A stretch of DNA of 64,000 nt from Fragilariopsis cylindrus CCMP1102 (Eukaryota; Bacillariophyta; Bacillariophyceae; Bacillariales; Bacillariaceae), in the NCBI GenBank assembly GCA_900095095.1, contig FMBT01000320.1, positions 310,001 to 374,000 of the forward strand. Reading direction: 5' to 3'. How positions within the stretch are numbered: position 1 is the stretch's first letter; each line of letters opens with the position of its first letter. Position numbers and translations under genes: made by a program. Below are positions 25,710 through 38,293 of the stretch, one piece after another. The notes under the pieces were generated by a model. That model had not been told where the DNA came from, ran no database searches, and saw nothing but the letters and a program-made list of their open reading frames with translations.

Positions 25710-28557
25710 TTATTGATGCTGTCCTTCTACTGGTAGAATAACATTGTTTAAAACATAATCCAAATTTGTCATGCGTGAATTACTTGTTCTTGCATAATCA
25801 ACTTTGCTTTCTTCTTCTTCTTCTTCTTCTTCTTCGAATTCCTCCCCTTCAACCTCTGCTTCTTCTTCTTCTGCCACTACGGTTGTTGGAATTGTATCAT
25901 CCACTGCTACAGATGGAGTAGTAGGTGTAGGAGAATTCGATTGCGAATCAGTGGGAGAATTCGACTGTGAATCAGTAGGAGAATTCGATTGTGAATCAGT
26001 AGGAGAATTGTTTGGTGATGTCGTTGGACTGTAAGTTCGTGGATGCATTGGGATGTCGGTAGTAGAATCGGTTGGTGAATCAGTAGTAGAATCGTTCGGT
26101 AATGTCATTGGACTATCAGTTGGTGGTTTCGTAGGAGATATCGATGGTGCCTTTACTGGTGGATTTGTTGGTGTTATTGGCAAAATTACAGGAAGAGGAC
26201 TACCAGTGTGACTTTCTGTTATTGGTTGTGGTTCTTGCCGTGTCATTAGAAGTTGTGCTGCATCCGATGGTGAATCAGTAGGAGGATTAGTTATTGGTGA
26301 TACCGTTGGAAAATCAGTTTGGGAGTTGGTTGGTGATATTGGCGATGAACTTGTTGGGTTGACAGTAATAGGACTGTCAGTAGGAATGCCGGTAGTAGAA
26401 GCAGTTGGTGAATCAGTAGGAAAGTTAGTGATTGGCGATACTGTTGGGAAATCAGTCCGGGAGTTGGTTAGTGATATTGACGGATCGTTAGTCAGTGAAT
26501 CCGTTGGACTGACAGTAATAGGACTTTCAGTAGGAATGTCGGTAATATAATCGGTTGGTGAATTAGTCGGAACATCGGTTGGTGATCTTGATGGTGTCGT
26601 GGGACTATCAGTTGGTGATGTTGCTGGTGAATCGGTCGGTGATTCCGTAGGAAATAACGATGGTGAATCAGTAGAAGATACCGATGGTGAATCGATAATA
26701 GAAAGATTAGTAGTTTCATAATCGACTTTCCTCTCTTCTTTTTCTGCTTCTGCTTCTGTTTCTGCTATGACTGTTGTTGTTGTCGTTGGATTTGTTTCAT
26801 CCGCTGCCACAGGTAAAGTTGTAGTAAGTAAAGCTGTTGATGAATCTCCTGCTCCATCAGGTGATGCTATTGACGATCTTGTTGGTGGTGGCGTTGTTGA
26901 TGATGCTTTTGTTGATGATGTTGGTGAATCTGTAAATATCGTAGAACCTGCAGATACAACTTTAAATCCGAGATCAGTGTTGAATTCATCATCTTCTACA
27001 GCCGTACTAATAATTTCAACTACTTCATCAAGTTGTAGTTCACTGCCTTCAACGGGAATTACTGTAATCACATTTTTATAACAAGTAACGTCGTCAGTTG
27101 TACCAGTAGGAGGAAAATAAATTGGATCGCAATCATCTAATAACTCAGCAACAACTATCACTGTAAGATCTGCTATCGTTTGTAGATGACGATGACGGCG
27201 GTCCTGTAGTTGTTCTCCTAAAACCTTTTCCGTTTCCAATTTCATATCAGCTTCAACTTGCTCTCTAGATTTAGTGTTAGGAGCAGCAACGATTACTTTC
27301 ACAGCGGCACCATTTTCAGATGGTGTGTCAATAACAGACGTACCAGAAGATGAACCAGAAGACGAATCACTAGCCGTTGGCGTAGTTGGAATTGCACTTG
27401 GAACAGTAGAGGGGGACTCAGATATTTCAAGACAAGTGACGCACAAATTATTTGTGGTATCGAAGGGTGATTCCGGATTGACTTGATTGTTGCATTTGCT
27501 ACTAGTAAACATCGAGTCTACTTCCGCGGTATCATTCATCCCACTGACATAGGTCTTGATCAAATAATAATGAACGAGAAAACATACCATTGAATTTCAA
27601 ACCTGCGCTAACATCCCAATCATTTAAATCGATGTTGAAAGTTTCGGTATTATCAAACATTTTACTAAAATCTGTACCTGCACTTACATTCCATTCACTG
27701 ATGTCCTGGTTGAAGACAGGATTATTCTCAAACATGGATTCAAATGATGTCACCGAACTAACATTCCAACATCCAATCTCATTGTTGAATTGTGAGTTAT
27801 CGATATCAGTACATGTTGATGAAGCATCTGAATATATATTACTCATATCAGTAACCTGTGAAACATCCCAACAACCAATAATGGTCCCAAATGCTTGTCC
27901 AATATTACTTGTCGCACCACCATTCACATTGAATTCATTAATGAATGCAGCAAGTTGTTTGGGTGTTGTGGATGCCGAAATTGGATTTCGTTGTGCACCC
28001 GGTACTAAATCACATTCTTCATTGCAAATTCGAATCGTTGGACTTCCGGAAGGGACTTGCGAAGGTACTTGCGTGTTGCAACCGTAGTAACCTTTGCTGC
28101 CTTTGCTGCCTTTACTACTACTGCTTTTACTTCCATAATAAACGCCGCAACCACCTTTACTGCCTTTGCTGCCTTTACCACCTTTACCTCCATAATAATT
28201 TGCATAGTAATTTCCATCGTAATAATTTCCATTACTATTATTGCCACCATAATAAAAATTATTGCCACCAGAATAACCATAATAACCGCCACCGCTCTTA
28301 CTACTTTTTAATTTACGGTCAATATTTCGTTCTATTGCTTGTTCACTATCTAATAAGGACAATGTTGCTGTTTCCTGTTGTTGCTGTAGTCTTGACCGTC
28401 GTAGTAGTAGGTAATCATTATTATTACCTCTGGTACGAAATTGTTGTTTGCTCGTCGATGTAGCAGTAGATGTACCTACTGATGAAAGTAGCGATACGGC
28501 GGCAACAATTGTAAAGAGTTTGACGACTATCGAACGTACTAAAGACATACTGATCAT
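25710..28557 (-). CDS. Secreted cingulin/silaffin-like protein with DUF285 repeats and an SPT stalk (one frame break)
   Basis: Two overlapping frames, 28557-27532 and 27590-25710, form one protein if a single base is removed near 27535-27545. There QDLCQWDE-stop should continue as MNDTAEVDSMFTSSKCN, as in the paralogue at 33.6 kb. Part 1 (341 residues): signal peptide (1-28), DYLLLRRSRL (48-57), R-K-L (81-83) followed by KSSKS, a Tyr/Gly/Lys-rich domain (89-160; GNYYDGNYYANYYGG, SKGSKGSKGYYGC), then DUF285/BspA repeats (205-341; FNQDISEWNVS). Part 2: a Cys-containing end of DUF285, a globular segment with an RRHRHLQTIADLTVIVV strand, a long SPTDSPT-type stalk, an acidic run of Glu and a short tail. 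Probable location: cell wall or secreted matrix. A silica or adhesive role is inferred from composition and from the RXL site. Confidence 0.75.
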
Positions 28558-28649
28558 AATGACGAATACTATATCTGTTTGTTTGAGTTTTTGACTTTGA
28601 CTTTGAGTTTGTTCTTGTGTGTCGGTTTTTGTTTTTGTGTGTGAGTCTA

Positions 28650-28654
<5 letters not shown>

Positions 28655-28680
<26 letters not shown>

Positions 28681-28681
28681 T
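28655..28681. repeat. (CT)n microsatellite
   Basis: About thirteen CT dinucleotides just upstream of the DUF285 gene start; it may lie in its promoter or 5' leader. Confidence 0.9.
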
Positions 28682-29621
28682 TTTGATTATGGTAATAAAA
28701 TTAAAAAAAATGCATGGTGGTATGATGATATTATTTTTATTTAGAAACATCCACGTAAAATAAAAATAAAATAACAGCGACTTCAATTTAATTAATTAAT
28801 ATATAATTGAATTCAATTAGATGTAATCGATGCCAAAATTTGTCTAAGGAAGAAAGTCATTGGATTCAATTAAGTATATCTCGAAGTTTTCTTCTTCTTC
28901 TACACGATCCGCAAGGTCATTTTAATACCATAAGTAATGTCCCCCTCCCCATACTAGTAGTCTTAGTCGCTCTTAAATGAAAATTCCTCAAATTCCAATC
29001 AAAAACTGACACTAACTTCAACACAGCGCGTTTTAATTGAAACTGTGAATGGATTAGAAAGCACACACGCGTCGCACAGTACCGTAAATTTACGTGGATG
29101 TGACCTCGTACGGCGTTAAATGGGGTTCTTCGTAGTCGTAGTCGTAAGTCGCAAGTCACATTTTACTATTGATTTGAATAATAAAAATATTCCTAACATC
29201 TACTACTGCTATGCTCTGCCCCCCAAACAAGAAATCTAGCATAAGTTTTCATTACTGAAGGTACGCACCGATTGCAATAGACACTCAGTCATCTACTGTC
29301 CGGTATTTGGGAAGGCACAGAAAATACTGGTAAATAAACGTTCGAACAATATTATATATTGTTACGTCATAGTCTGAAGTCTAAGCTAATAGAGGAAGAT
29401 ACCTACGAGTACTGTAGATAGTGTTTAAGTTTGGGGGATTGTTGTGTTTCCATTCCTTCGGGAATTGCATTCCACTCTACATATATTCCTAGTCACATTA
29501 TAGTACAGTACTAAGTTAGATAGAAAGTAGGACGTCTTTTTCCAGAATAAATAGTTGCTGTTTTTATGTATTTATGAATGATGTACAGTAACCGGCTGTA
29601 TTGGGGATTTAATCTATATTA
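28682..29621. other. Non-coding interval
   Basis: No gene supported. It is A/T-rich with TACAGTA/TACTGTA words (29412, 29503, 29581). A weak minus-strand frame at 28917-29159 has no family resemblance. Confidence 0.5.
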
Positions 29622-30125
29622 AAGGCATCGATTATTCATTCGCTGCATGCACTACGTATACGGCACGTACTGTACTATACTCTGTACCTTATACTTCCAT
29701 TTCGTAAAGTTAGTAAGTGCAGTAGTAGGACTACTTATGAGTTCTTGTTGATGATAATTATATTCGTCCTCGTTGAACATTCGCTGAAATATGCTTAAGA
29801 GTATAAACTATCAAAGCTTTGACATTTGTTATCCCTTGAGGATTCGTTGGTGCTGATGTAACAACAGCATTAACGGCATCGATTCTTCATTCGCTGCATG
29901 CACTACGTATACGACACGTACTGTACTATACTTTGTACATTACTTGCATTTTGCATAGTTAGTAAGCACAGTAGTATGCATGAGTTCTTGTTGTCTTTAA
30001 AATGATGATAGTTGTGTTCGTCCTCGTTGAACATTCGCTGAAATAAGCTTAAGAGAATTAACTCTTAAACCTTTGGCATTCGTTATCCCTTGAGGATTCG
30101 TTGGTGGTGATGTAACAACAACAGT
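29622..30125. repeat. Tandem duplication (~251-bp period) of a gene's 3' end
   Basis: 29622-29871 and 29872-30125 are imperfect tandem copies. Both run from GGCATCGATT...CATTCGCTGCATGCA through CGTACTGTACTATACT, GTTCTTGTTG, TTCGTCCTCGTTGAACATTC and ATCCCTTGAGGATTCGTTGG to GATGTAACAACA. Copy 2 includes the last ~40 codons and stop of the gene at 29997-32677. Copy 1 is a degenerate, non-coding repeat of the same segment placed after that stop. Confidence 0.9.
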
Positions 30126-32677
30126 AACGACAGGAGCGTCTGTAATAGGCTGCAGTGGTGGTGGTGTTGGAGGTGGCGTCACTGGAACAGCAGTTATGGT
30201 AACGACAGGAGCGTCTGTAATAGGCTTGGTTGGTGGTGGTGTTGGAAGTGGCGTCACTAGAACAGCAGTAGCAGGTGGTAGTGTTGGAGGTGGCGTGACA
30301 GGAACAGCAGTAATGGTAACGGCAGGAGTATCTGTAATAGGCTTGGTTGGTGGTGGTGTTGGAAGGAGTGTTACTGGAACAACAGGAGCAGGTGGTAGTG
30401 TTGGAGGTGGTGTCGCAGGAATGGTAACGACAGGAGCGTCTGTAATAGGCTGTGACGTTGGTAATGGCGTAGTCGCCGGAGCAACAGGAGCAACCGTGGT
30501 CGTTGTTGTTGCTGGATTATCGATTGGACTATCAGTTGGTTCGTCATCGTCGTCGTCGTCATCGTCGACATCATCATCGCCAGTAGCAGTAGTAGTAGTT
30601 GGACTGAACGATGGATGAAACGTTGTAGATGGATCGGTTGGATTGAAAGTTGGACTAGTAGTACGTTGTTCTTGCTTTATCTTCCCATCATCCTTATCAT
30701 AAGCATCTTCATCTACATTACTAAAGACGAAGTTGCTGTTGTTATTGACTTCAGTAGTCGTTGGTTGATCTGTTTTTGTTGCTGCATAGTGCATATTGAC
30801 ATTGTCGAAAACGATAATGGAACGGGTATAGAAAGAGTAATAAGGTGGAAAAAGCAGTTAGTTTACTTCTTCATCATTATAATAGGATCTAGTTGTGTCG
30901 TAAATTTGGCCGTCTTTAGGGAAAACTACAATACTATACAGTAGCGCTTTAATCATGTATATTCAATACAATACTGTATAGCAATACAGTTCATAAATTT
31001 TTTATTTTACTTACGAAAAAATGTAGAAAGGTCTGCTGTTGTTGGCGAAACTGCCGGTATATCCGTTGCTGCACTATCAGTTCGACTATCAGTTGCTGAA
31101 TCGTCGTCATCATCGTCATCATCATCCCCATCGTCATCATCATCGTTTCCAGTAGTAATAACAACCGGCAGTAATGGTGTTGGTATATTCGTTCTATCTT
31201 GTCCAATACCAGCAATAGTTTCTGTCCGTGAAGTAGTTACTACAACTGGTGATGCTGATGGTGGTGCACTGACCAATGGTGCTGAGGATATTGTTGGTGT
31301 AAGTTGACTTCTACTTCCTTCACTTGATTTATTCGTGTTTGTCATGGACTTCTCTGCCTTTGAAGCTGATGATTTCAAAGACTTTTCTGTCTTCGCTGTC
31401 GTCGTTGAAGTTGATTTATTCGATTTTTCTGATCTAATACCAATTTGTGATTTCATAGACTTATCTGACTTCGCTGCTGCCGTTAAAGCTCCAGCAACAG
31501 TTACTGTCGGTGAAGTAGTTACTACAACTGGTGCTACTGATGGTACATCACTGACCGATGGCGCTGGGGATGTTGTTGGTGTACGTTGACTCTTACTTCC
31601 TTTACCTGCTTTGTCTGATTTATTCGTCATGGACTTTTCTGCCTTTGAAGCTGATGCTTTCAAAGACTTTTCTGCTTTCGTCGCCGTCGATGTTGAAGCT
31701 TTAGCTGATTTCATCGACTCATCTGACTTCGCTGCTGCCGTTACAGCTCCAGCAAAAATTATCGGCGGTAAAGTCGTTACAATTGGTGCTGCTGATGGTA
31801 CATCACTGACTGATGGCGCTGAAGATGTTGTGGGTGCTGCTGATGGTACATCACTGACCGATGGCGCTGGAGATGTTGTTGGTGTAAGTGTAAGTCGACT
31901 CTTACTTCCTTTACTTGATTTGTCTGATTTATTCGACGTCGTGGACTTTTCTGCCTTATTTGAAGCTGATTTTTCTGATTTAAATCCAAAAAAGATATCA
32001 TCACCACTTCCTTTACTTGATTTGTGCGATTTATTCGATATGGACTTATCTGCCTTTGTACTAGCTGATTTTTCTGATTTAAATCCAGAAATAATATTAT
32101 CACCACTACTTCCTTTACTTGATTTTTCTGATTTATAATTCGTCATGGACTTATCTGCCTTATTTGAAGCTGATTTTTCTGATTTAAATCTAAGAAAAAT
32201 ATTATCAACACCACTTATTCCTTTACTTGATTTGTTCGTCATGGACTTATCTGCCTTAATTGAAGCTGATTTCTTTTCTGATTTAAATCTAAGAAACATA
32301 TTATTACTAGTATCACTTTTATCACTTTTTAATGCACGACGATTAAGTTTAAGAGTTAGATCAAGATCATCCTCCTCGTTTAATCGTCTTTCGTTCTTGT
32401 TCTCGTTCTCTTCTTCACCTTGTCCGACGATAATTGCATCGCTATTGTTGTCTAATAATAATAACGACATCATTACTGCATGATCTCTTGATCTTCTATC
32501 ATTTCCTCTTCTTAGATAATAGGAGGATGATAATGCATGATTGGTAGGAGTAGTAGCAGTAGTAGCAGCATCATCAGTAATAGTAGACGAAGAAGATTCT
32601 ACGACAGCTGCCGAAAATAAGAACAAGAAGACAACAATAACCAGCGTTGTTGAAGGAGAGCATGCAGTATTGATCAT
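29997..32677 (-). CDS. Secreted silaffin-like Lys/Ser-repeat protein
   Basis: Exons 31015-32677 and 29997-30781 join through a 233-bp intron (donor GTAAGT, acceptor TATGCAG) in matching phase, giving 815 residues. Residues 1-27 form a signal peptide. YYLRRGND (53-60), MMSLLLLDN (69-77) and RRAL (113-116) followed by KSDKS match the two neighbouring genes. Residues ~128-260 are four repeats of about 34 residues built on FKSEKSASNKADKSMTNKS, with Lys spaced as K-x-x-K, the pattern of silaffins and cingulins. Further Lys/Ser blocks alternate with Pro/Thr/Ser linkers (SPAPSVSDVPS). An acidic Asp run and a Pro/Thr-rich C-terminal exon (PPPTKPITDAPVVTI repeats) complete it. Phosphorylated Ser and modified Lys would suit silica binding; this is inference from family composition. 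There is no DUF285 domain. Confidence 0.8.
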
Positions 32678-33586
32678 GATTGCTCTTAAGATTTTTTTTT
32701 TAATAGACTAACTGTCCATACTATAGTCTGTATATATCGAGACTGACTCTTGTCTTTTTATTAATGCTGTTTTTTTGTTGTTGTTGCTATCCTTGTTCTC
32801 ATAAAAGATGATATGATCGAGTTGGAACAACAGAAAAAAAATTAATGCCATATAAGAAACGTTTTGCTTCCTACAAGACTCAGTCATCCATGACGTGCGT
32901 GAGGGAAATAATGAGTGTTTTTGGGGACTGTAAATTATTGCGAACAAGTAAAATAGACGCGTGAATTTTACAAAATAAATAAATAGTAGACATAAATGTG
33001 TGAAAGTCTTTCTTCGATAACCCTCAAAAGCATGATTAAAAACAAAAATGCTTCGAGGGCAATACTAACTATAACGAATCTTGCCTAAAATAAATAATGA
33101 TCCACACAAAACAAAGAGATGCTTTCAGGATTTTTTTATTTATATATTTCGGGGAACGAAGGAGATGCACGACAGCTTTTATTGTGATAATGGGAAAACG
33201 CCAAACTAAACAATAAAGTCCTACGAGGCTTTTAACGTTACAGTGTATACTTGTGTGATGTACTTCAAATTTTTGTTCTTTGTGAGAGGGAACGCACGCA
33301 CGCAGCTTACGGTAGCTCTACGACTTCCGATATCATATCATTCTTTTTTTTTGAGGAACATCGTAAAGATTACTATTTATATACGATTTAAGTTGCAGTG
33401 TATGTATAAAGGCTGTAATGTTATGGTACATTTTAAAGAATAAGAAAACGTATAGTAGTCTTTCTGATTTACTGTTTATATTAATCAACATTATTTATTT
33501 ATATATATTTTCTTTTGATTGTACATTTATTTCAGTCAGTACAGTAGTCCAAGTACTACTGTAAGTATTGTCCACTACTAGTATCG
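32678..33586. other. Non-coding interval
   Basis: Promoter side of the silaffin-like gene and 3' side of the next. No gene seen. It has A/T-rich stretches (33130-33150, 33490-33515) and TACAGTA at 33540, immediately downstream of the next gene's stop. A frame at 32708-32947 has no support. Confidence 0.5.
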
Positions 33587-36280
33587 CTAGTATATGATGA
33601 TATAATCAGTAGCACAAGGTCCAAGATCTTTTTCCTTGCATGTGAGAGGACAATAATAAGATAATAGTTTAATATCTCCTTCATCTGTTGGCCAATTTTT
33701 CTTACATCTCTTTCTGGTCCTTTTTTCACCAACCCATGTACAATTTTTAGCATCAAATCCCCTATATTTAAGGTTGGTACTGTCAATGCATTTATCAGTA
33801 CGTACTTCAGATCGAGTGTCCTCACCACCGATCCTTGCTGTACTTAAAATCGTAGCACCTCCATCTCGGCCTGTAGATTGAGCTACAGTTGCATTACCTG
33901 CAGTATTACGGCAACTTTCGCAAAAATTATTCGGATTTTGATCGAAGCGAGGTGTTGGTTCCATTTTATTATTGCATCCACTGGAAAGAAACATGCTGCT
34001 CACTTTGGCATCGTTCCGCATTCTATTCCCCCATGCACAAAGACGTTGTTGAAAAGAAGCGGCGAAGGCAAACATGCCTCCAAAATTGGTCGCAGAACTC
34101 ACGTCCCACTCACTAATAACTCCGTTGAAGACACTATTTCCTTCAAACATTGTTTCAAAACTGGTCACAGAACTCACGTCCCAATCATTAATATCTCGAT
34201 CGAAGAAACTTTGTTTAAACATGCTTTCAAAAGTAACAGCAGAACTCACGTCCCAATCATTAATATCTCGATCAAAGCTACTAAAAGCAAACATTCCTGC
34301 AAAACTAGTCGCAGAACTCACGTCCCAATCATTAATATCTCGATTGAAGGCACTTGATGCAAACATGCCTTTGAAAGTAGTTGCAGAACCCACGTTCCAA
34401 TCACTGATATCACTATTGAAGAACCTTGCCTGAAACATACTTTCAAAACTGGTCGCAGAACGCACATTCCAATCACTGATATCTCCATTGAAGACACTTG
34501 ACTCAAACATGCTTTCAAAACTAGTTGCAGAACTCACGTTCCAATCACTGATATTTCCATTGAAGATATTATTTAGTAAAAACATGTTTTCAAAACTAGT
34601 TGCAGAACTCACGTTCCAATCACCAATAACTCCATTGAAGGCAAAATTTTGTGCAAACATGCTTTCAAAAGTAATCACAGAACTCACATCCCAACATTCA
34701 ATATCATTATCGAAACTTCTGTTGTCATAAATATCAATCATACTATACGCAAGTCGCATATTTTGTACCGCTGATACGTCCCAACAATTGATAATGTTTC
34801 CGAAGTCTCTTCCACTTGTACTACTAGCTTCACCGTTAACATTAAAATCATTGATATATCTAGCAAACTCAATGTCGGTTGTTCCTGCAAGAAGTCGAGA
34901 TCCACTTGCACCTTCTGCGTTGCATAATGTTGCGCACCGAGAAAGAGTTGCGGTAGGCGATGTAGTAGGCGATGTAGTAGGCGATGTAGTAGGCGGTGCA
35001 GTAGGCGGTGCGGTAGGCGGTGCAGTAGGCGGTGCAGTAGGCGGTGCAGTAGGCGGTGCAGTAGGCGGTGCAGTAGGCGGTGCTGATGGGGATCCAGTAG
35101 GTGATCGTGTAGGTGATCGTGTAGGTGATCGTGTAGGTGATCGTGTAGGTGATCGTGTAGGTGATCCTTTCGGGGATCCTTTCGGGGATCCTTTTGGGAA
35201 TCCTGTTGAGAATCCTGTTGAGAATCCTGTTGAGAATCCTGTTGAGAATTCAGTAGGGGATGCTGATGGGGATCCAGTAGGTGATCGTGTAGGTGATCGT
35301 GTAGGTGATCGTGTAGGTGATCCTTTCGGGGATCCTTTCGGGGATCCTTTCGGGGATCCTTTCGGGGATCCTTTCGGGGATCCTTTTGGGAATCCTGTTG
35401 AGAATCCTGTTGAGAATCCTGTTGAGAATCCTGTTGAGAATTCAGTAGGGGATGCTGATGGGGATCCAGTAGGTGATCGTGTAGGTGATCGTGTAGGTGA
35501 TCGTGTAGGTGATCGTGTAGGTGATCGTGTAGGTGATCCTTTCGGGGATCCTTTTGGGAATCCTGTTGAGAATCCTGTTGAGAATCCTGTTGAGAATTCA
35601 GTAGGGGATGCTGATGGAGATCCAGTAGGTGATCGTGTAGGTGATCGTGTAGGTGATCGTGTAGGTGATCCTTTCGGGGATCCTTTTGGGAATCCTGTTG
35701 AGAATGCAGTAGGGGATGCAGTAGGGGATGCTGATGGGGACGCTGATGGGGATCTTGTAGGTGATCCAGTGGGTGCAGCACTGGCAGAAGATGCAGGTGC
35801 TGTTGTTTGACTCCCTCTTACTTTACTACTCTTACTTGATCTGTTTGATTTGTCTGATTTCATCGAAATTGCTTTCTGTGATTTACTTGACTTTTGCTTT
35901 GTACTAAAACTTTTACCACTTTTTAAGCTACGACGAATATTGTTCTCGTTTCTTTCGTCGTAATCTTGGTCTTCTTGTTCGGTAATACCATTATCATTAT
36001 TGTTGTCGCTGTTTTCTAATGATAATAATGATAACGACAATACTGTTTCTTGTTCTTCTCTTGATGATGATGATCGTTTATTATCAACATTGCTTCGTCT
36101 TAGATAGTCAGGAGTAGCACGATGATTGACAACACTATCATCCTCGACGGCACTATTAGTAATAGACGTGGATGAAGATGAGAATGACGAGTCAGCTTTT
36201 CCGACAGCAATCGCTGAGAAGAAGAAGAATGAAAAGATAACAAGCGCTGAAGTAGTGGAGACTATATTATTGATCATCAT
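33587..36280 (-). CDS. Secreted DUF285/BspA-like wall protein with silaffin-like and SPTR/SPKG/STGF repeat domains
   Basis: 897 residues, single exon. Order of parts: signal peptide (1-29); DYLRRSNV (58-65); Leu-Ser-rich segment (80-90); R-S-L (117-119) followed by KSGKS; a Lys/Ser silaffin-like domain to ~156 (KSSKSQKAISMKSDKSNRS); a tetrapeptide repeat region (~165-440) in blocks PTRS, PTGS, PSAS, PTEF, STGF, PKGS and then APPT and TTSP; about nine DUF285 repeats (~450-790; DISDWNVSSATSFESMF); and a six-cysteine C-terminal domain (~828-890; C-x15-C-x11-C-x17-C-x3-C-x7-C, with NCTWVG and YYCPLTC) resembling ShKT-like domains. The signal peptide, RXL junction and repeats point to a processed extracellular protein of the frustule or its organic coat. 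Function is inferred. Confidence 0.85.
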   Translation of the reverse strand: MMINNIVSTTSALVIFSFFFFSAIAVGKADSSFSSSSTSITNSAVEDDSVVNHRATPDYLRRSNVDNKRSSSSREEQETVLSLSLLSLENSDNNNDNGITEQEDQDYDERNENNIRRSLKSGKSFSTKQKSSKSQKAISMKSDKSNRSSKSSKVRGSQTTAPASSASAAPTGSPTRSPSASPSASPTASPTAFSTGFPKGSPKGSPTRSPTRSPTRSPTGSPSASPTEFSTGFSTGFSTGFPKGSPKGSPTRSPTRSPTRSPTRSPTRSPTGSPSASPTEFSTGFSTGFSTGFSTGFPKGSPKGSPKGSPKGSPKGSPKGSPTRSPTRSPTRSPTGSPSASPTEFSTGFSTGFSTGFSTGFPKGSPKGSPKGSPTRSPTRSPTRSPTRSPTRSPTGSPSAPPTAPPTAPPTAPPTAPPTAPPTAPPTAPPTTSPTTSPTTSPTATLSRCATLCNAEGASGSRLLAGTTDIEFARYINDFNVNGEASSTSGRDFGNIINCWDVSAVQNMRLAYSMIDIYDNRSFDNDIECWDVSSVITFESMFAQNFAFNGVIGDWNVSSATSFENMFLLNNIFNGNISDWNVSSATSFESMFESSVFNGDISDWNVRSATSFESMFQARFFNSDISDWNVGSATTFKGMFASSAFNRDINDWDVSSATSFAGMFAFSSFDRDINDWDVSSAVTFESMFKQSFFDRDINDWDVSSVTSFETMFEGNSVFNGVISEWDVSSATNFGGMFAFAASFQQRLCAWGNRMRNDAKVSSMFLSSGCNNKMEPTPRFDQNPNNFCESCRNTAGNATVAQSTGRDGGATILSTARIGGEDTRSEVRTDKCIDSTNLKYRGFDAKNCTWVGEKRTRKRCKKNWPTDEGDIKLLSYYCPLTCKEKDLGPCATDYIIIY
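34946..35770. repeat. 12-bp coding minisatellite with higher-order structure
   Basis: Twelve-base units (plus strand GGTGATCGTGTA, GGGGATCCTTTC, GAGAATCCTGTT, GGCGGTGCAGTA) fill ~825 bp and encode tetrapeptides on the minus strand. Four larger blocks each begin near GCTGATGGGGATCCAGTAG-type sequence (about 35082, 35261, 35454 and 35609) and differ in the number of each unit. The plus strand is open across the whole tract only because the unit length is a multiple of three. Confidence 0.95.
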
Positions 36281-37232: not shown

Positions 37233-38293
37233 ATGTTATTTTCACGCACTGTTATTTCATCTCTTTTTTTTTCTTGTTTCGTCGTCGAAGGCAATTTCTT
37301 TCGATATAGAGGAGAAACCAAAGACAGAATCAAGTATATTTCGTGTTATCAAGCCAGCTGCATGAAGACGAAAACTTGGCAACTTTTGAGCCGTCTTTCG
37401 GTTTGTTTAATTTTTCGGATCCTTCAACTGGTGTGATTGGAACAAGATCATTTTTTTCTGGTAATGTTTATGATCGACGAACTACACCAATCAAACTGGA
37501 AGAGTCAGGACAAGGATTTCAACCGGTCGTGATTCCTGTACCACTTGATGGTGTAATTGGGACATTTTCAAGTATTAGTCTTGTAACACGTGGACTTCCA
37601 GCGCAAGATTTCGACCCGGATAATCCTAGCACGAAAATAACAATCACACAAATATCGTATACGGCTTATTTATGTGTCAATGAAATAGCAGCTGATCCAT
37701 TAGGTCCAGTTCTTGGTTGTTTACTTCTTCAATATGGTGGTCCATTTATTTTTTAATCACATATTGGATGCAGCTACGTTCCCAACATCAATTGATGCAG
37801 TAAGTTGTTGTGATTATTATACTATGATGATAGCTACTTTTTCTTTCTCTGTTTCGAATACTCATATTATGACACTGTGCACATTTATATTCGTTTTTCT
37901 TTAATGTTTTGTTATGCGTACTACTGTAGGATGTTTCTGGTGGTACAGGAATGCTTAAAGGTGCAAGTGGAATGGTTGTTAACGTTAATCGTTCCAATTC
38001 AGGTGGTAATGTTAGTTGTACTTGATCTAATCATTACTCTTGATAGTGATTTACCAAATTATATGCTTGCAACGAGATCACCGACATGTGGTAAGCAATC
38101 ATGTACCGATAATTTTGAATACGGATTTGAGGGCGATGCTTCAAAAGATTGTGACTGGGCTGCGAAGAAATCTAACAAACGATGCAAAAAAAAGGACTCT
38201 AGAACCAAGAAGATGATCAGCTTTCATTGTCCTTCCGTGTGCGATAGTGAATGCACAAAAAAGAAGAGACCGAAAAAGAGCAAAGGATCATAA
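37233..38293 (+). pseudogene. Dirigent-like barrel protein with six-Cys C-terminal domain, frame-broken
   Basis: The ATG at 37233 opens a signal peptide (MLFSRTVISSLFFSCFVVEG). The homologous reading then moves to another frame (37343-37753: SFFSGNVYDRR, LDGVIGTFSSISLVT, PVLGCLLLQY), shifts by one base in a T run at 37749-37754 (continuing NHILDAATFPTSIDA), and passes a GTAAGT...TAG intron (37800-37929). It resumes with DVSGGTGMLKGASGMVVNV, the GGTG-x(3)-GA signature of dirigent/allene-oxide-cyclase-like barrels. It shifts one base again near 38020-38026 and ends with ITLDSDLPNYML and a six-cysteine domain (C-x15-C-x10-C-x14-C-x3-C-x3-C; DCDWAAKK, FHCPSVC) like the end of the gene at 33587. 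Three breaks make a pseudogene likely; assembly indels remain possible. Confidence 0.6.

What the first reader, a model, noticed from the sequence alone, without database searches (positions are those of the whole stretch)
25710..36280. Cluster of three secreted proteins sharing an RXL-KSxKS processing junction: candidate silica or cell-wall locus
Three consecutive minus-strand genes share an ordered N-terminal plan: signal peptide; YLRR-like motif (DYLLLRRSRL, YYLRRGND, DYLRRSNV); Leu/Ser-rich segment (TLSLLDSE, MMSLLLLDN, LSLSLLSLEN); then R-K-L, R-A-L or R-S-L followed at once by KSSKS, KSDKS or KSGKS. RXL pro-peptide cleavage and K-x-x-K/Ser-rich mature regions are known from silaffins and cingulins. 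Beyond the junction the proteins diverge, which suggests one secretion and processing module attached to different material-forming domains. Two also carry DUF285 repeats, a combination I do not recall being described. The silica role is inference.
Basis: partly seen in the sequence, partly recalled or inferred. Interest (0 to 1): 0.88.

Follow-up and report, generated by a model that had tools for sequence, protein, structure and literature searches.

The report
Silaffin-like leaders on DUF285 proteins
Three neighbouring genes of a silica-forming alga, most likely a diatom, encode secreted proteins with a cutting site and a lysine-serine tag like those of known glass-wall proteins, and two of them join that tag to DUF285, an abundant repeat domain of unknown function, which makes a cell-wall role for this domain testable.

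Summary
Genes A, B and C each have a hydrophobic signal-like start, a YLRR-like motif, a Leu/Ser stretch and R-x-L followed at once by KSxKS. The octamer appears in 6-16 of 100,000 residue shuffles per protein. B and C leaders are clearly homologous; A-C is weaker; A-B alone is not significant. The genome has 27 matches to silicon transporters, so it is a silicifier, most likely a diatom. Signal, pro-stretch, RXL is the published RXL domain of biosilica proteins, and KxxK clusters are published frustule-targeting signals. What I did not find in print is their fusion to DUF285. A DNA pattern built from the junctions matches exactly at five places in the genome: A, B, C and two genes with Cys-rich repeats. 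Unexpectedly, 16 of 23 DUF285 genes have an RXL tripeptide 6-10 residues before the Cys cap of the solenoid. So RXL processing may be a property of the DUF285 family here, not only of this cluster. Silica or wall location remains inference: no expression, proteomic or localisation data, and no second diatom genome, could be used.

The parts
33587..36280 (-). Gene C, 897 aa, one open frame: signal-like start, pro-leader, RXL-KSGKS, K/S stretch, long SPT/PT repeat linker, DUF285 solenoid, Cys-rich C-terminal domain
   Evidence: ORF; Pfam DUF285 E 2.6e-77 and PT repeat E 3.7e-12; Cys-rich domain aligned
36086..36109 (-). C: DYLRRSNV motif
36011..36040 (-). C: Leu/Ser stretch LSLSLLSLEN
35909..35932 (-). 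C: junction RSL-KSGKS
35822..35923 (-). C: Lys/Ser stretch with three overlapping pentalysine clusters
33962..34939 (-). C: DUF285 solenoid with its Cys caps
   Evidence: Pfam; limits
33614..33796 (-). C: Cys-rich C-terminal domain; 83 places in the genome match at E <= 0.01 (a lower bound)
31007..32677 (-). Gene B, first exon (556 aa; 10.3% Lys, 18.9% Ser): signal-like start, leader, RAL-KSDKS, then repeated Lys/Ser units alternating with P/S/T-rich linkers
   Evidence: tandem array 31904-32304, period 99, 3.9 copies
32498..32521 (-). B: YYLRRGND motif
32447..32473 (-). B: Leu/Ser stretch MMSLLLLDN
32315..32338 (-). B: junction RAL-KSDKS
31895..32284 (-). B: Lys/Ser repeat block holding one lysine-enriched region KSSKGSK
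29997..30781 (-). B: probable second exon, P/T-rich, joined by a GT..AG intron of about 233 nt (acceptor not certain; 245 nt and others also keep the frame)
   Evidence: inference from frame and splice consensus
27532..28557 (-). Gene A, first part (341 aa): signal-like start, leader, RKL-KSSKS, Tyr/Gly-rich segment with two lysine-enriched regions, start of DUF285
   Evidence: DUF285 E 5.2e-29
28387..28416 (-). A: DYLLLRRSRL motif
28342..28365 (-). A: Leu/Ser stretch TLSLLDSE
28294..28317 (-). A: junction RKL-KSSKS
28087..28293 (-). A: cingulin-Y-like segment, 69 aa with 14 Tyr, 23 Gly, 11 Ser and 8 Lys, holding KGGKGSKGSK and KSSSSKGSKGSK
25710..27590 (-). Gene A, continuation in another frame: end of the DUF285 C-cap, a domain shared with K/S-rich genes elsewhere, then P/T/S-rich tail
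26946..27296 (-). A: 'VAAP' domain (my name) with an internal RHL-Q site; relatives on C571, C260, C234 and C307
   Evidence: no Pfam match at E <= 1 for A's copy

Best explanation
A, B and C are secreted precursors of cell-wall (frustule) proteins built from interchangeable parts. Step 1 (from sequence): a signal-like N-terminus sends them into the secretory pathway, and no later segment looks membrane-spanning. Step 2 (inferred from published RXL proteins): a diatom protease cuts at the R-x-L at the end of the pro-leader, so the mature protein begins at KSxKS. Step 3 (inferred from published targeting work): the Lys/Ser tract, with KxxK and pentalysine features, is modified and binds or directs the protein to forming silica or its organic matrix. 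Step 4 (inferred): behind it the payload differs: a DUF285 solenoid in A and C, long Lys/Ser repeats in B, Cys-rich repeats in the two outside relatives. The DUF285 part would be a structural or binding face held at the wall. The cluster arose at least partly by local duplication (B and C) with exchange of payloads.
For: Silicifying host: 27 matches to the silicon transporter family PF03842. Motif order and rarity. No 19-aa segment beyond residue 45 averages above 1.59 Kyte-Doolittle units, against 2.04-2.33 at the N-termini. Published lysine-enriched-region rule (PMC9650480): two such regions in A, one in B, none in C; C instead has three pentalysine clusters. Such regions are infrequent in the sequence held, which is not a random sample: 7 rows, 6 distinct genes, of 219 ORFs of 150 aa or more. 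The junction DNA pattern, built from the five known copies, matches exactly at 5 places of the genome: A, B, C, C67 and C464. The last two carry a signal-like exon, RRL, KSSK x6 and Cys-rich repeats. Payload exchange: the closest DUF285 relatives of C (pieces of 66% identity on C648, 60-79% on C565) carry a fasciclin-type stretch instead (Pfam run on the C648 copy). DUF285 family: 16 of 23 genes have RXL 6-10 residues before the Cys cap against a shuffle mean of 0.67 and maximum of 4 in 2000; RxL ranks first of 400 spaced pairs, in 6 of 12 sequence groups, with x = Q, K, R, H, S, I or F. Another DUF285 gene (C432) has, in the reading frame that follows its solenoid, a long Lys/Ser/Arg stretch, KGGGKSGGKSGSGK and a terminal RRRIL.
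Against: No transcript, proteome or localisation data. C has no lysine-enriched region by the published rule, and neither A nor B has a strict pentalysine cluster. In cingulin CinW2 the two N-terminal lysine-enriched regions could be deleted or mutated without loss of frustule targeting, though each alone could target GFP (PMC9650480, passages), so such a region is not proof. A-B leader similarity is not significant. Gene A has a broken frame. The 16 RXL-bearing DUF285 genes are related, so counts are not independent: they fall in 6 of 12 groups. A and C, the genes of this finding, lack RXL directly before the cap. One source says that RXL sites had so far been found only in biosilica proteins but that their role in precursor processing remained to be proven (PMC5647440, passages). 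The genome pattern for R.LKS.KS with loose Ser codons gave 234 hits against 321 for its reversed control, and the strict junction pattern with up to two mismatches 65 against 136.
Confidence: 0.6

Rival explanations
1. Adhesion or mucilage proteins: RXL-processed secreted glycoproteins of the outer coat or trails, with PT-rich linkers and DUF285 or fasciclin as adhesive domains, not silica-embedded.
For: A fasciclin domain stands in place of the leader in C's closest DUF285 relative; raphid-diatom signature genes include three fasciclin proteins tied to adhesion (PMC7335047, passages); PT linkers and Cys-rich ends look like surface proteins.
Against: Lys/Ser tracts with KxxK clusters are a published frustule-targeting feature; a Lys/Tyr-rich Amphora protein chosen as an adhesive candidate turned out to be in the biosilica matrix (PMC4220933, passages).
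Confidence: 0.22
2. RXL is a general processing site of the diatom secretory pathway and DUF285 here serves recognition (mates, bacteria) or ice binding; the Lys/Ser tract is only a charged linker.
For: RXL sits before many DUF285 domains without any Lys/Ser tract; [quoted passage not shown]
Against: Published RXL sites were reported from biosilica-associated proteins; A, B and C add KxxK features exactly after the site. I did not test RXL in secreted non-wall proteins of this genome.
Confidence: 0.13
3. Low-complexity convergence: Ser, Lys and Arg-rich N-termini matched by eye, with no shared origin or function.
For: A-B leader similarity is not significant; single octamers are short and the locus is rich in simple repeats.
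Against: B-C leaders 0 of 2000 shuffles, octamer 6-16 per 100,000; C and the C67 and C464 genes share 72% and 71% identity over about 50 residues across the junction; the three octamers of the window fall at similar places of three signal-bearing genes.
Confidence: 0.05

Closest known systems
Silaffins and silaffin-like proteins of Thalassiosira and Cylindrotheca
   Same: Signal peptide, pro-stretch ending in RXL, Lys/Ser tracts with KxxK; PT repeats occur in 14 silaffin-like or KXXK proteins of T. pseudonana (PMC5501833, passages)
   Different: No folded repeat domain reported for them in the passages I saw; here two of three carry a DUF285 solenoid; B is the nearest to a plain silaffin-like protein
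Y-type cingulins
   Same: A has a Tyr/Gly-rich segment with lysine-enriched regions like KSGKGSKSSGKSGK of CinY2 (PMC9650480 Table 1, seen)
   Different: Cingulins Y are said to lack the N-terminal RXL (PMC5647440, passages), which A has; A adds DUF285; the conserved 17-aa 'unknown motif' could not be compared
Silicanin-1 and SAP proteins (RXL domain)
   Same: In Sin1, 30 residues after the signal peptide ending in RRL, called the RXL domain (PMC5525289, passages); RXL after the signal in all three TpSAPs (PMC5647440, passages)
   Different: Those are membrane proteins; A, B and C show no second hydrophobic segment
DUF285 / PARCEL repeat proteins
   Same: DUF285 by Pfam in A and C; six PARCEL genes reported in Phaeodactylum, none in T. 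pseudonana (PMC2996958, passages)
   Different: The words silaffin (PMC11992049) and silica or frustule (PMC2996958) do not occur in the two main papers as searched

Membership tests
RXL-domain biosilica-associated proteins | N-terminal signal peptide | tested here: met
   Hydropathy only (2.04-2.33 over 19 aa from residues 6-8); no SignalP run
RXL-domain biosilica-associated proteins | Short pro-stretch after the signal ending in RXL | tested here: met
   RKL at residue 81 (A), RAL at 114 (B), RSL at 117 (C); longer than the 30 residues of Sin1
RXL-domain biosilica-associated proteins | Presence in biosilica or silica vesicle | not testable with these tools
   needs localisation or proteomics
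Silaffin-like proteins (screen of PMC5501833) | Repeated K-[S/G]2-K motifs one to six residues apart | tested here: inconclusive
   C has KSGK and KSSK six residues apart (met); A and B have motifs that overlap by sharing a Lys rather than being one to six apart; four of B's KSSK lie 34-36 apart
Silaffin-like proteins (screen of PMC5501833) | Pentalysine cluster (five non-adjacent Lys in 12-14 residues) | tested here: inconclusive
   met in C (three) and in the C67 relative (four); not met in A or B
Silaffins by composition (rule recalled, from no call: at least 10% Lys and 18% Ser) | Lys and Ser content | tested here: inconclusive
   B exon 1 meets it (10.3%, 18.9%); C only in 100-aa windows within residues 51-227; A nowhere. 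B with its second exon would be below 10% Lys
Cingulins | Lysine-enriched region: at least two K-[S/G]2-4-K motifs at most four residues apart | tested here: inconclusive
   met in A (two) and B (one, KSSKGSK); not met in C
Cingulins | Y-type conserved 17-aa motif after the signal | not tested
   motif letters are in supplementary files, not read; A has a Tyr/Gly-rich segment
DUF285 | Pfam PF03382 above the curated cut-off | tested here: met
   A 100.9 and C 256.7 bits against 25; B no match

The most novel reading that the evidence does not exclude
In this diatom the large DUF285 solenoid family is a class of RXL-processed cell-wall proteins: an RXL site was kept just before the Cys cap in most members examined while the surrounding residues changed, and in the window cluster (and in C432, apparently independently) a silaffin- or cingulin-type lysine tract was added so that the solenoid is bound to silica. 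DUF285, named as the only domain of unknown function among the 100 most transcribed diatom families, would then be a frustule or wall-surface protein family.
Probability: 0.35. Interest if true: 0.75.

Novelty: new variant of a known kind. Interest (0 to 1): 0.52.

Why it matters
DUF285 is reported as the one domain of unknown function among the top 100 diatom Pfam families by transcript abundance (PMC11992049, passages). A silaffin-type leader on DUF285 proteins, and an RXL site before most of the DUF285 domains examined here (16 of 23), give that family a concrete and testable place: the processed cell wall. It would also show how frustule proteins diversify, by swapping folded domains behind one processing site and lysine tag. 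The two PARCEL counts in print (six in the pennate Phaeodactylum, none in T. pseudonana) would fit a lineage-specific kind of wall protein.

Tried and rejected
Chance motif: rejected for the junction, kept open for A's leader. Loose codon pattern for R.LKS.KS: uninformative, since its Ser code also admits Thr and Cys or stop codons; of 234 hits, the first 30 in contig order were cut out as loci, 2 of these encode the octamer and neither frame holds a start or a signal. Promoter sharing: B-C reaches 2 of 300 shuffles but the match is a 15-base A-rich word, so no claim. Leader relatives at C278, C447, C451 and C26 (E 0.013, 1.6e-4, 0.12, 0.15): read and rejected as unrelated or low-complexity; five weaker ones were only skimmed, and six (E 0.77 and above) were not read. 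PDB search of C: only low-complexity matches to Circumsporozoite protein and OCM3. Viral contigs with C's leader: 15 stretches matched a pattern, none a relative. One search printed no row for gene B's lysine-enriched region; one search repeated the count with another de-duplication and is the one I use. Literature: DUF285 with diatom gives 3 papers (passages of two read, the giant-virus review PMC10720644 not read); (30 of 281 papers listed, those with more terms first) lists none holding DUF285 with silaffin or RXL; RXL with leucine-rich repeat and diatom gives 11, by title mostly oomycete or plant-immunity work (listing only); the listings show no title joining DUF285 and silica; one search was too loose to tell anything. 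Biosilica proteome papers of subscription journals are not held, so absence in print is only for this library.

Full report
What was checked. The three minus-strand genes exist as described. The quoted motifs sit at the given places and in the given order. The octamer R.LKS.KS is found three times in the six-frame translation of the window, once in each gene, 80, 113 and 116 residues after the start methionine. Shuffling the first 200 residues gives it 6, 16 and 9 times in 100,000 trials. Gene models need care. A changes frame inside the DUF285 C-cap. B probably continues through a GT..AG intron into a P/T-rich exon, giving 815 aa. C is a single 897-aa frame.

Host. The window lies in a 67.9-Mb, 818-contig assembly with 27 matches to the silicon transporter family, best E 1.1e-226; some pairs look like alternative haplotypes. 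PF03842 is said to be found mainly in diatoms and dictyochophytes (PMC11992049, passages). I take it as a diatom; the species was not identified.

Is the leader one module? B and C leaders are homologous: score 91 against a shuffle mean of 36, 0 of 2000 shuffles, and still 0 of 2000 without the octamer. A and C reach 8 of 2000 (97 without it). A and B reach 176 of 2000 (476 without it). At DNA level the best local match includes the junction for A-C (2 of 500 codon shuffles) and B-C (0 of 500); A-B gives 76 of 500. A pattern made from the known copies is found exactly at five places in the genome, the three genes and C67 and C464; with up to two mismatches it has 65 matches against 136 for its reversed control, so only the exact matches carry weight, and these were used to build it. 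What the search adds is that there is no sixth exact copy. Those two further genes have, as I model them, a signal-like first exon, a GTAAGC donor, then SNENNIRRRLK followed by KDKS or RDKS and KSSK repeats, then copies of a Cys-rich domain also found at the end of C and in 83 places at E <= 0.01. In that model they lack YLRR and the Leu/Ser stretch, so the junction with its Lys/Ser tract, not the whole leader, is the mobile unit.

Match to published rules. [quoted passage not shown] Lysine-enriched regions and pentalysine clusters can target GFP to the frustule; yet two such regions of CinW2 could be removed without loss of targeting (PMC9650480, passages). By these rules A has two lysine-enriched regions inside a Tyr/Gly-rich segment, B one, C none but three pentalysine clusters; B exon 1 is 10.3% Lys and 18.9% Ser. 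Among 219 ORFs of at least 150 aa in the sequence held (the window and fetched loci, not a random sample), 7 rows (6 distinct genes) have such a region: A, B, C67, C464, C432 and an acidic and lysine-rich frame on C451 whose start is not held.

The DUF285 family. The PF03382 search reports 180 matches, often several per gene. I read 26 DUF285 loci at whatever flank was held. In 23 a Cys cap could be found before the solenoid; in 3 (C63, C411, C439) not. In 16 of the 23, R-x-L lies with its R 6-10 residues before the first cap Cys; shuffles give a mean of 0.67 and at most 4. RxL is the top of 400 spaced residue pairs, 16 genes and 6 of 12 sequence groups; x is Q, K, R, H, S, I or F, while the residues after L differ between groups. 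The genes are related and two (C401, C648) look like haplotypes, so this is not 16 independent events. The 7 exceptions are C343 (Q in place of R) and six genes whose cap follows a P/S/T-rich linker, A and C among them. In A and C the RXL instead stands far upstream, at the KSxKS junction. A second DUF285 type, C432, has RRL before its cap and, in a frame following its solenoid, a long Lys/Ser/Arg tract with KGGGKSGGKSGSGK and a terminal RRRIL. That gene has several frame changes in the held sequence, so the link is likely but not proven.

Payload exchange. C's nearest DUF285 relatives (pieces of 66% identity on C648 and 60-79% on C565, likely haplotypes of one gene) have a fasciclin-type stretch where C has its leader (PF02469, E 3.8e-10, run on the C648 copy). 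A's late domain ('VAAP', no Pfam match) has six further copies on C571, C260, C234 and C307. I read four of the six; they stand beside Lys/Ser-rich stretches, and 4 of the 5 aligned copies, A included, have an RXL in the corresponding loop. So Lys/Ser tracts, PT linkers, DUF285, Cys-rich, fasciclin and VAAP parts are combined in several ways in secreted genes of this genome.

Verdict. The mechanism most likely is: secretion, RXL cleavage, a lysine-serine N-terminus that binds or is built into the wall, with a DUF285 or other payload. The first two steps rest on sequence and on published analogues, the third on published targeting work, and the wall role of DUF285 is inference. The listings and the passage look-ups show no statement joining DUF285 to RXL, silaffins or silica, within this library. 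It is a new variant of a known kind, of moderate interest, which rises if the RXL-before-cap rule holds in other diatoms.

Noticed in passing
G000 DUF285 loci (among L001-L046): R-x-L 6-10 residues before the Cys cap in 16 of 23 DUF285 genes, with variable x: a family-wide processing signature not asked about in the finding.
   Followed up: partly
L008 (C432), frame +, from about 2556: A DUF285 gene with a Lys/Ser/Arg-rich tail, KGGGKSGGKSGSGK and a terminal RRRIL; several frame changes in the stretch.
   Followed up: partly
window 37233-38293, + strand: Gene divergent from C, with a frame change or intron: signal-like start (37233-37292), a stretch of about 130 aa without Pfam match, then the same Cys-rich domain as C's end and a Lys-rich tail.
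   Followed up: partly
window 29618-30129: 254-bp tandem duplication (two copies, 84% matches) that includes the 3' end of gene B's second exon.
   Followed up: no
window 27532-27590: Frame change inside A's DUF285 C-cap, next to a GGG run: assembly error or decay.
   Followed up: no
L002, L005 (C648, C565): Fasciclin plus PT linker plus DUF285 in one secreted gene.
   Followed up: partly
L089-L091 (C571, C260, C234): A domain of about 120 aa with a conserved AAP core and an RXL in its loop, next to Lys/Ser-rich stretches; no Pfam match over the cut-off for the two sequences tested.
   Followed up: partly
G000: Several silicon transporter and DUF285 loci occur in near-identical pairs on different contigs, so the assembly seems to hold both haplotypes in part.
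   Followed up: no
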